Positions 5,179 through 23,138 of a DNA stretch of 31,479 bases are shown here, piece after piece. Position 1 is the stretch's first letter; each line of letters opens with the position of its first letter. The notes beneath the pieces are model-generated. The model saw only the letters and a list, made by a program, of their open reading frames with translations, did not search any database and was not told the DNA's origin. The stretch is from a virus. The DNA is taken from IMG/VR virus record IMGVR_UViG_3300033153_002462, positions 1-31,479 of that record. One strand, given 5' to 3'. The position numbers were made by a program, and so were the translations under genes.

Positions 5179-5206
5179 ATAAATACAAATAAAAATTAAT
5201 TTCCTC

Positions 5207-5235
5207 TTGACTTACTTTCTCCCCTATGGTATATT
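5207..5235 (+). promoter_or_regulatory. Sigma70-type promoter P1
   Basis: TTGACT (5207-5212) and TATATT (5230-5235) are spaced by exactly 17 bases. An A/T-rich UP-like stretch lies just upstream, and TATGG precedes the -10 box. It drives the operon starting at 5282. Confidence 0.85.
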
Positions 5236-5281
5236 ATGTGTATAAGAAACATTTATTAACCTATGGATGAGGAGAAGTAAG

Positions 5282-15503: not shown

Positions 15504-15565
15504 TCCCCTACACACAGGCTATTTCTAGCTCAGTTATATTTATTTAATAAAATATTAATTTACCA

Positions 15566-15594
15566 TTGACATTATATATGTCGTATGGTATATT
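15566..15594 (+). promoter_or_regulatory. Sigma70-type promoter P4
   Basis: TTGACA (15566-15571) and TATATT (15589-15594) are separated by exactly 17 bases, with TATGG immediately before the -10 box and an A/T-rich upstream stretch. It starts the accessory-gene block. Confidence 0.88.
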
Positions 15595-15639
15595 CTCTAT
15601 ATCAAGTTAATAACAACTTGGTATTTGAGGAGCGAAAAG

Positions 15640-20737: not shown

Positions 20738-20778
20738 GTTAAGCCGGGGGTTCCCCAGACTCCCGGCTTAACATTTTT
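20738..20778 (+). terminator. Rho-independent terminator
   Basis: A perfect 11-bp stem (GTTAAGCCGGG at 20738-20748 with CCCGGCTTAAC at 20762-20772) with a 13-nt loop is followed by ATTTTT. It ends the P5 operon just before the gene at 20791. Confidence 0.9.
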
Positions 20779-21120: not shown

Positions 21121-21153
21121 GCCCCGGCTTCATTGTGGAAGTCGGGGCTTTTT
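21121..21153 (+). terminator. Rho-independent terminator
   Basis: An 11-bp stem (GCCCCGGCTTC at 21121-21131 with GAAGTCGGGGC at 21138-21148, one G-U) with a 6-nt loop is followed by TTTTT. Gene-free sequence runs to promoter P6. Confidence 0.9.
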
Positions 21154-21592: not shown

Positions 21593-21860
21593 GTTCAATA
21601 GGGATAAGCTGGATGAGTCCATAGAGGCAAAGTTGTTGGCTAATGGGTTCAGTTACCATGATGATTATGAGTATGGCCCTCAATCTGGATGGGGTGGTGA
21701 TTGTGAGATGTATACCATGTGCCTTACCAAGCATGGGTTCGGGTACAGTATCTTTGTATCAGCACATGCAAGTGGAACCAATAAGGGGATCTGTCTAGGT
21801 TCATCGAATAGTGCCGAGCATATCATTTCATTGCGTGATTCATTGGCTAAGTTGTTTTGA
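21582..21860 (+). CDS. Hypothetical protein with aromatic/Gly-rich centre
   Basis: This is a 92-residue protein. The central GPQSGWGGDCEMYTMCL and HGFGYSIFVSAHASG segments are strand-rich, followed by a C-terminal helix (ISLRDSLAKLF). No family is recognised. It is the last gene before the cassette-like array. Its stop is immediately followed by the TTGATTGGAGGG leader shared with the cassette genes. Confidence 0.55.
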   Translation: MVDRFNRDKLDESIEAKLLANGFSYHDDYEYGPQSGWGGDCEMYTMCLTKHGFGYSIFVSAHASGTNKGICLGSSNSAEHIISLRDSLAKLF

Positions 21861-21873
21861 TTGGAGGGAACAA

Positions 21874-22083
21874 ATGGAGTTGGTGGTAGAGCGTTGGGAA
21901 AAGCGCAAGGGAGATATAAGACTAACCGGAAAATACCACGATGATAGGGTGCGGGATGCCATGATAGAACATATATTTAGTTCTGTTGAGTTTACCAGAG
22001 ATGCACCTTGCAACCGTGAAGTGCTGGACGCAATGGCTAAAGCGCATGGGTGCACTCTCGTATATGAAGAAGTGACAACCTAA
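21874..22083 (+). CDS. Small unknown protein, gene ending in an attC-like site
   Basis: This is a 69-residue protein of unknown function. GGAGG lies a few bases before the ATG at 21874, within a TTGATTGGAGGG leader (21857-21868) shared with the two following genes. Its stop codon TAA (22081-22083) lies inside the ACCTAAC core site of the attC-like palindrome, as is common for integron cassette genes. It could be a resident gene captured next to the site or a first cassette whose left boundary has decayed. Confidence 0.6.
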   Translation: MELVVERWEKRKGDIRLTGKYHDDRVRDAMIEHIFSSVEFTRDAPCNREVLDAMAKAHGCTLVYEEVTT

Positions 22084-22136
22084 CCGTGGAAATAATAGAG
22101 CGAACTTGTGAGTCGATATTAATTGACTTGTTAGGT
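22078..22136 (+). other. Integron attC-like site 1 (59 bp)
   Basis: The left core ACCTAAC (22078-22084, RYYYAAC) and right core GTTAGGT (22130-22136, GTTRRRY) are inverted repeats. Inside them, after 5 unpaired bases on each side, AA-x-TAATA pairs with TATTA-x-TT and a short CGA/TCG follows. The order R''-L''-L'-R' relative to the upstream gene is that of integron attC sites, and 59 bp is a typical size. Confidence 0.65.
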
Positions 22137-22166
22137 CTAACGTTTAATTGATTGGAGGGTAGGACG

Positions 22167-22376
22167 ATGGTATTTAAATCCACCTTTGAAAACGATCAGG
22201 GCTTCTTTAAGATTAAAGACACTAAATACAGAATTGAGGGTATTACTGCTGACCAGTTCCACACTATAAACGTGATGCTAAATAGATCCTTTTATATTGG
22301 CCGTGAGGCAGGGGCTAGAATGATGAGGCTGACAGCTATTGCAAGCATGGATAGCGAGCAGGAAAGGCTGAAGTAA
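22167..22376 (+). CDS. Cassette-like gene 1, unknown function
   Basis: This is a 69-residue protein, strand-rich then helical, with no family recognised. It lies between attC-like sites 1 and 2, so the predicted cassette would be 22131-22460. GGAGG lies about 8 bases before the ATG at 22167. An in-frame TTG at 22152 overlaps it and is unlikely. Codon use is more AT-rich than that of the phage structural genes, consistent with acquisition. It stops 7 bases before the second site. Confidence 0.6.
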   Translation: MVFKSTFENDQGFFKIKDTKYRIEGITADQFHTINVMLNRSFYIGREAGARMMRLTAIASMDSEQERLK

Positions 22377-22382
22377 TTTAGT

Positions 22383-22467
22383 AACCTAACCGTGGAGTTG
22401 ATAAGCGCATCGAGCGCACGCTTATCAGCCGTTGAATTATTGCGCTCATCAAACGACTTGTTAGGTT
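22383..22467 (+). other. Integron attC-like site 2 (85 bp)
   Basis: AACCTAAC (22383-22390) and GTTAGGTT (22460-22467) form the outer core stem. After 7 unpaired bases on each side, TTGAT-A-AGCGCA pairs with TGCGCT-C-ATCAA (12 positions, one mismatch), the L''/L' box. The mismatch becomes a T-G pair on the bottom strand, the strand used by integron integrases. An inner hairpin, GATAAGCG...CGCTTATC, forms a variable terminal structure. Confidence 0.75.
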
Positions 22468-22491
22468 TTATATTTGATTGGAGTAGAGGCT

Positions 22492-22746
22492 ATGCAACTA
22501 ACAGAAACGTACAAAGGTTTGTTTTTTGACGACTTAAAAGAGGGTGATGCCTTTATTTTGGCAAAGAACACTAGCGCACTTGAAGGTAAAAAAGAAGATT
22601 ATCTATTCGTTAAGAAGTGCGGTGATGACGGGTGTAATGCTACTTACATGAATGACGCAACGCTTGATTTCGGAAGGTTCAGTATTGGGACAAATCCAAG
22701 AGTCAAAAAGATTAACAAAATCAATGTATGGTTGACTGAAGAATAG
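22492..22746 (+). CDS. Cassette-like gene 2, unknown function
   Basis: This is an 84-residue, strand-rich protein with three Gly-Asp turns and a C-terminal KINVWLTEE strand. No family is recognised. It lies directly behind attC-like site 2, with GGAG in the shared TTGATTGGAG leader (22474-22483). Its stop at 22746 is immediately followed by AACCTAAC, the left core of a third, damaged site. Confidence 0.6.
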   Translation: MQLTETYKGLFFDDLKEGDAFILAKNTSALEGKKEDYLFVKKCGDDGCNATYMNDATLDFGRFSIGTNPRVKKINKINVWLTEE

Positions 22747-22747
22747 T

Positions 22748-22768
22748 AACCTAACACGTATATAGGTT
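22748..22768 (+). other. Incomplete attC-like site 3
   Basis: AACCTAAC (22748-22755) is identical to the left core of site 2 and lies in the same position after a stop codon, but no GTTRRRY partner is found at the usual distance. Only a short TAGGTT (22763-22768) can pair with its first six bases. It looks like a truncated or eroded site. Confidence 0.4.
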
Positions 22769-23094: not shown

Positions 23095-23103
23095 TTTTAC
23101 ATA

Positions 23104-23132
23104 TTGACAACAGTTTGCTGGTAGGTTATATT
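23104..23132 (+). promoter_or_regulatory. Sigma70-type promoter P7
   Basis: TTGACA (23104-23109) and TATATT (23127-23132) are separated by 17 bases. The predicted start near 23139 falls on the first base of a predicted structured small RNA and no open reading frame follows. Confidence 0.88.
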
Positions 23133-23138
23133 CTCTCT

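What the first reader, a model, noticed from the sequence alone, without database searches (positions are those of the whole stretch)
21857..22768. Integron-like gene cassettes with attC-type sites inside a phage genome
Two small genes of unknown function are bounded by imperfect palindromes whose ends are ACCTAAC and GTTAGGT, matching RYYYAAC...GTTRRRY. Site 1 (22078-22136) is 59 bp. Site 2 (22383-22467) has core, spacer and inner L''/L' pairing, and its single A-C mismatch on the top strand becomes a T-G pair on the bottom strand, the recombining strand of attC. Orientation relative to the genes is correct, a stop codon is embedded in the first left core, and all three genes share a TTGATTGGAG leader. 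A third left core is present but damaged. No integrase is visible. Known phages rarely carry such arrays, so this may be a route for cassette movement or a phage-specific variant of the system.
Basis: partly seen in the sequence, partly recalled or inferred. Interest (0 to 1): 0.88.

Follow-up and report, generated by a model that had tools for sequence, protein, structure and literature searches.

The report
Reversed integron cassettes in a phage
This phage carries a short row of small genes separated by integron-type recombination hairpins (attC), and, as in many other phages but unlike in bacterial integrons, the hairpins point against the genes, so the mobile unit is hairpin-then-gene; elsewhere one such unit was found 100% identical in two otherwise different phages.

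Summary
The two palindromes are real, and attC-type sites are the best reading. A scorer built from 37 known attCs ranks them first and second in the window. Each score alone is modest, but no shuffle in 150 gives two same-strand sites this strong within 1 kb.

The minus strand carries the conserved attC flanks and the extra base on the canonical side, so the attCs are antisense to the genes. The units become [attC]-[leader]-[ORF], at 22084-22389 and 22390-22754. The 'damaged third core' is a lone crossover box at the array edge.

Phage attC arrays were already described (Qi et al. 2023, PMC9892861), with IntI1 activity. What I did not find described is the reversal. Genes abutting attCs are 93 sense/10 antisense in IntI-linked integrons but 23/77 in viral records. 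Breakpoints confirm the unit: a 328-bp attC+gene unit is 100% identical in two phage contigs (L112, L117) with unrelated flanks, ending exactly at YAA^C.

No integron integrase is present in this contig, so a host IntI in trans is inferred. No close relative was found, so cassette presence/absence could not be tested here.

The parts
22078..22136 (-). attC-type site 1 (59 bp); R' box = minus-strand GTTAGGT (plus 22078-22084), R'' box at plus 22130-22136; crossover 22083|22084
   Evidence: score 15.5, second best in the window, minus polarity; weak inner stem
22384..22466 (-). attC-type site 2 (83 bp); R' box plus 22384-22390, R'' box plus 22460-22466; crossover 22389|22390
   Evidence: score 17.7, best in the window, minus polarity; minus-strand fold z -4.1
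22749..22755 (-). lone crossover box ACCTAAC (minus GTTAGGT), entry-side edge of the array in minus polarity; crossover 22754|22755
   Evidence: no palindromic partner (fold z about 0); its role is inferred
22084..22389 (+). inferred mobile unit A (306 bp): attC 1 + leader + ORF2
   Evidence: crossovers placed by G^TTRRRY; unit type shown by breakpoints in L112/L117 and L112/L132, not in this phage
22390..22754 (+). inferred mobile unit B (365 bp): attC 2 + leader + ORF3
   Evidence: as for unit A
21874..22083 (+). ORF1 (69 aa), unknown function; stop TAA lies in the first core; has the shared leader but no attC before it
   Evidence: no homologue
22167..22376 (+). ORF2 (69 aa), unknown function
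   Evidence: no homologue
22492..22746 (+). ORF3 (84 aa), unknown function
   Evidence: no homologue
21857..21866 (+). shared leader TTGATTGGAG before ORF1 (contains GGAG ribosome-binding motif)
   Evidence: only three exact copies in the window
22148..22157 (+). shared leader TTGATTGGAG before ORF2
22474..22483 (+). shared leader TTGATTGGAG before ORF3

Best explanation
A short cluster of integron-type attC sites without an integrase (CALIN) in a tailed-phage genome, with attC polarity antisense to the genes. Shown: box, spacer and arm anatomy; polarity by sequence; the same layout in many other viral arrays; exact exchange of [attC]-[leader]-[ORF] units between other phages. Inferred for this phage: the two units entered at G^TTAGGT boxes by single-strand recombination catalysed by an integron integrase of the host acting in trans, with the phage coding strand as the folding, recombining strand. 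In this polarity the array's entry side is the 3' end of the transcription unit, so a new unit would be appended behind older genes; each unit brings its own ribosome-binding leader. Why phages favour this polarity is a hypothesis: the recombining strand is then the non-template strand, and would be the lagging-strand template if replication and transcription run the same way.
For: 37-attC scorer ranks the two sites 1st and 2nd in the window, both on the minus strand; two such sites within 1 kb in 0/150 shuffles; minus beats plus by 14 and 16 bits, and all 37 known attCs score higher in true polarity; spacers 5 and 6 nt and the extra L'' base at position 4 as in aadA/cmlA attCs. Same antisense layout in 16 of 22 viral records against 0 of 11 integron loci, with stop codon TAA in the core and a start codon shortly after the attC. 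A 328-bp attC-first unit is 100% identical in L112 and L117 with unrelated flanks, bounded by YAA^C. Five of six tested phage attCs recombine with attI1 through IntI1 (PMC9892861).
Against: Site 1 has a weak stem and both sites score below most known attCs. Fold energy of site 2 slightly favours the other strand. The extra base gives an A rather than the usual G on the recombining strand, and site 2 can also be aligned without a bulge. No relative of this phage shows gain or loss of a unit. No integrase in the contig, host unknown.
Confidence: 0.8

Rival explanations
1. Conventional sense-oriented cassettes (each gene followed by its attC), with a truncated attC after ORF3.
For: Sense cassettes are the norm in integrons (93 of 103 abutting genes) and occur in phage TJE1 and some viral contigs; site 2 folds slightly better on the minus strand.
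Against: Spacer lengths, extra base and flanking sequence all point the other way; the start of the supposed first cassette (AAGTTGTTTTGATTGG) has no GTTRRRY box, and the third core needs a special deletion.
Confidence: 0.1
2. Not attCs: phage-specific intergenic hairpins (RNA processing or termination signals, or homologous-recombination linkers such as the stem-loop promoters of T4-like phages; the latter from memory) that resemble attC by chance.
For: Each site alone scores within reach of shuffled sequence (19/150 and 5/150); site 1 folds poorly; shared leaders could reflect duplication of a whole intergenic element.
Against: Both sites carry attC-specific asymmetry, not just a palindrome; middles differ completely while ends are conserved; same gene-to-site layout as arrays with demonstrated unit exchange; no Rfam match and no T-tract at either hairpin.
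Confidence: 0.12
3. Real attCs, but a decayed remnant: captured once and no longer mobile in this phage.
For: Site 1 has a weak stem; ORF1 lacks an attC; sites score below most known attCs.
Against: R boxes of both sites are perfect; exchange is recent in other phages (100% identity). This rival is compatible with the anatomy of the best explanation and concerns only present activity.
Confidence: 0.25

Closest known systems
CALINs of phages (Qi et al. 2023, PMC9892861: TJE1, PH101/H101, P12002L, MW202573)
   Same: Clusters of at least two attCs with small genes and no integrase in phage genomes; H101 and MW202573 also have attCs antisense to their genes
   Different: The main text does not mention reversal; TJE1 is sense oriented; no shared genes with the window
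Bacterial integron cassettes (class 1/2, Vibrio, Shewanella)
   Same: attC boxes, spacer lengths, extra L'' base, stop codon near the core, small promoterless genes
   Different: There the unit is gene + attC and the attC is sense to the gene (93 of 103 abutting genes); an IntI and attI are present
Antisense arrays in IMG/VR phage contigs (L099, L112, L117, L125, L131, L132, L109, L004 and others, found here)
   Same: Antisense attCs, stop codon TAA often in the core, start codon shortly after the attC, no IntI
   Different: Higher attC scores, up to 8 sites per locus, no genes in common with the window

Membership tests
attC recombination site | R''/R' boxes RYYYAAC...GTTRRRY, complementary | tested here: met
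   7 of 7 pairs at both sites
attC recombination site | Inner L''/L' stem with unpaired spacer and extrahelical base | tested here: inconclusive
   clear stem in site 2, weak in site 1; extra base at the canonical position in minus polarity, but it is A rather than G on the recombining strand
attC recombination site | Score in a model of known attCs | tested here: inconclusive
   best two hits in the window and significant as a pair, each alone modest; home-made model, IntegronFinder/HattCI not available
attC recombination site | Recombined by IntI, bottom strand preferred | not testable with these tools
   needs the attC x attI assay; shown for other phage attCs in PMC9892861
Bacterial-type gene cassette (gene + attC in sense) | attC sense to the gene, at its 3' end | tested here: not met
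   attC antisense to all three genes
CALIN | At least two attCs close together, no integron integrase nearby | tested here: met
   sites 250 bp apart; TIGR02249 absent from the contig; the contig may be incomplete
Complete integron | IntI gene and attI site | tested here: not met
Viral attC-first cassette (layout defined here) | Antisense attC, ribosome-binding leader and start codon shortly after it, stop codon in or near the next core | tested here: met
   start codons 33 and 28 nt after the attCs; ORF1 stop in the core, ORF2 and ORF3 stops within 8 nt of the next box
Viral attC-first cassette (layout defined here) | Unit gained, lost or shared as an exact block between phages | not tested
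   no relative of the window phage and no shared cassette found; shown only for L112/L117 and L112/L132

The most novel reading that the evidence does not exclude
Phages maintain their own pool of reversed, attC-first cassettes, each [attC]-[leader]-[ORF...TAA^], exchanged between different phages by host integron integrases in trans and added at the 3' end of phage operons: a phage counterpart of the bacterial cassette pool that uses integrons without carrying one.
Probability: 0.5. Interest if true: 0.87.

Novelty: new variant of a known kind. Interest (0 to 1): 0.73.

Why it matters
If phages share a pool of small genes as recombinable units and use the integrases of their hosts, integrons would be gene-exchange machines for viruses too. 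That would offer a site-specific source for part of the mosaicism of small phage genes. The reversed polarity makes it directly testable: the recombining strand should be the phage coding strand, and new units should appear at the 3' end of the array. It would also change how attC arrays in phages are annotated, since the hairpin belongs to the gene after it, not before it.

Tried and rejected
Exact-pattern searches for the window's own attC ends in IMG/VR and GTDB genomes gave chance hits in coding DNA, except L004 (real array). Rfam: no match. ORF homologues: none in IMG/VR (ORF2), PHROGs, Pfam or phage records. Close relatives of the phage: none by capsid; by terminase 42% at best, on short contigs, without attC hits. 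Searching bacterial genomes by taxon from an E. coli locus was not possible. A first palindrome finder without bulges missed most real attCs. A crude longest-ORF test of orientation was noisy in GC-rich arrays (integrons 66 sense/7 antisense, phages 12/24), so gene calls were used. A stricter phage-only tally (6 sense/72 antisense genes) was softened to 23/77 because several sense contigs left out of the phage group also have phage genes.

Full report
OBSERVATION. The window is a 31,479-base virus record with a terminase, a phage capsid protein and a DnaC-like helicase loader. Their ends are perfect 7-bp boxes, ACCTAAC/GTTAGGT, at 22078-22136 and 22384-22466. They share AACCTAACCGTGGA on the left and GACTTGTTAGGT on the right, while the middles differ in sequence and length. 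Site 2 folds better than shuffles on both strands; site 1 only weakly. TTGATTGGAG occurs exactly three times, once before each of the three ORFs.

IS IT MORE THAN CHANCE? I took 37 attC sites from integrons, read in the sense of their genes, and built a scorer from the spacer and arm sequences plus arm pairing. The two sites are the two best hits in the window. Alone each is modest: in 150 dinucleotide-preserving shuffles the best hit reached 17.7 in 5 and 15.5 in 19. Two same-strand hits of at least 15.4 within 1 kb never occurred.

POLARITY. The box motif is its own reverse complement and says nothing about direction; the flanks do. Most known attCs read TAACAA... at the R'' end and ...GCGTTA at the R' end, and all 37 score higher in their true orientation than flipped. 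In the window this signature is on the MINUS strand: ACCTAAC-AAGTC-GTT[T]GATGAGCGC ... GCGCTTATCAAC-TCCACG-GTTAGGT for site 2 and ACCTAAC-AAGTC-AAT[T]AATA ... TATTATT-TCCACG-GTTAGGT for site 1; compare aadA: GTCTAAC-AATTC-GTT[C]AAGCC ... GGCTTAAC-TCAAGC-GTTAGAT. Spacer lengths (5 and 6) and the extra base at position 4 of L'' fit minus. Scores are +3.4 (minus) against -10.8 (plus) for site 1, and -5.5 against -21.3 for site 2. So the attCs are antisense to the three genes. The fold energies do not decide: site 1 favours plus, site 2 minus.

WHAT THIS DOES TO THE ANATOMY. With minus polarity the crossovers G^TTAGGT lie at ACCTAA^C in gene direction: 22083|22084, 22389|22390 and 22754|22755. The units are 22084-22389 (attC 1, leader, ORF2) and 22390-22754 (attC 2, leader, ORF3). 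ORF1 carries the leader but no attC; it may be a resident gene or a cassette that lost its attC (inference). ORF1's TAA stop is part of the first core.

RELATED ARRAYS. No close relative of this phage was found and the ORFs have no homologues in the collections searched. I therefore fetched viral contigs with canonical attC patterns, phages of Qi et al. 2023 and IntI-linked integrons, and called attCs and genes by the same scripts. In IntI-linked integrons 93 abutting genes are sense and 10 antisense; all 11 loci are sense. In viral records the numbers are 23 and 77 (Fisher p 7e-24 by gene; 16 of 22 records antisense against 0 of 11, p 9e-5). Genes within a record are not independent, and two undecided records, L101 and L118, are left out of the record count. 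H101 and MW202573, both listed by Qi et al. as carrying attC clusters, are antisense to their GenBank genes (two H101 attCs were shown active with IntI1 there); TJE1 is sense. The antisense arrays share one layout: the TAA stop of the preceding gene is often the TAA of the crossover core, and the next start codon, usually with a ribosome-binding motif, typically lies 10-40 nt after the attC. Window site 1 fits this layout; at site 2 the preceding stop lies a few bases before the core box.

EXCHANGE IN OTHER PHAGES. L112 and L117 come from different metagenomes and have unrelated flanks on both sides. They share a 332-base identical block, running from ...GCA|CAACGCTTAGG to CCCCTAAC|GCT... in L112 and from ...GGC|CAACGCTTAGG to CCCCTAAC|CAG... 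in L117: a 328-bp unit bounded exactly by YAA^C, containing the attC at its 5' end and excluding the next one. This fixes the polarity by breakpoints, independently of the scorer. L112 and L132 share another unit at about 90% with the same kind of boundaries. These contigs carry phage genes: RecE/RecT and single-strand binding protein (L112), single-strand binding protein, exonuclease and DNA methyltransferases (L132), tail protein (L117, L131), terminase and portal (L105), Mu-like transposition proteins (L109), a Sak4-like protein (L125); terminase matches were also found in the whole records of L112, L125 and L004 and in the window.

MECHANISM. No match over the cut-off for the integron-integrase family was found in the window record, in the other attC-bearing viral records searched, or in H101, TJE1 and MW202573, except in G018 (L084), which holds a conventional sense array. 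The best inference is a host integron integrase acting in trans on the folded recombining strand, which here is the phage coding strand. attC recombination is favoured when that strand is the lagging-strand template (PMC5371416). In co-directionally replicated genes the coding strand is the lagging-strand template, which offers a reason for the reversal; phage replication direction is unknown here, so this is a hypothesis. A second consequence is that entry at the array edge would append new genes at the 3' end of a transcription unit. In the window a promoter-like site (11 of 12 matches) lies at 23104-23132, after the next gene, and a terminator-like hairpin lies upstream at 21121-21148; these are consensus matches only.

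KNOWN OR NEW. attC clusters in phages are known: 17 CALINs, 3 complete integrons and one In0 element in 10,705 phage genomes (PMC9892861). Five of six tested phage attCs recombined with attI1 through IntI1. The main text of that paper does not mention reversal and calls the TJE1 and PH101 cassettes typical; its supplements could not be read. Literature searches found no other report, but most subscription papers and all preprints are missing from the library. I therefore file the finding as a new variant of a known kind.

LIMITS. The orientation survey is not a random sample: contigs were found through class-1-like attC patterns, and phage identity was judged partly after polarity was seen, which is why the wider 23/77 count is given. 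The scorer and gene caller are home-made. Nothing here shows that the window's own two sites recombine.

Noticed in passing
window 5206-5239, 15565-15598, 23103-23136: Three copies of a promoter-like element on the plus strand (TTGAC(A) - about 17 nt - TATATT); two score 11 of 12 sigma-70 matches. They may be the phage's own operon promoters; the array ends one gene before the third.
   Followed up: partly
window 20738-20772 and 21121-21148: Two strong terminator-like hairpins with T-tracts (15 and 11 pairs) upstream of the array, suggesting that the array lies in a short transcription unit of its own.
   Followed up: no
L112 8504-8767 and L117 6279-6554: The identical cassette gene reads through the crossover into the neighbouring unit, so its protein ends differ (...PNAEVTGA against ...PNQTAKRRPASA): cassette exchange changes the C-terminus of the preceding protein.
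   Followed up: no
L038 24532-24582 and 25934-25984 (phage H101): Two identical attCs in H101 (62 identical bases across the site), suggesting cassette duplication or recent exchange within that phage.
   Followed up: partly
L132 2123-2797 and 1333-1728: DNA methyltransferase genes lie between antisense attCs in this phage array, in line with the methyltransferases that Qi et al. report in phage cassettes.
   Followed up: no
L118 (IMGVR_UViG_3300048833_000262) 23-2910: Nine attCs in 2.9 kb; gene calls are mixed but the longest ORF is antisense in all 8 intervals. Its attCs are about 96% identical to some in L131 and L086.
   Followed up: partly
L080 1886-3013: A Zot-domain gene (filamentous-phage type assembly ATPase family) on a contig with two conventional, sense-oriented attCs: filamentous phages may follow the bacterial layout.
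   Followed up: no
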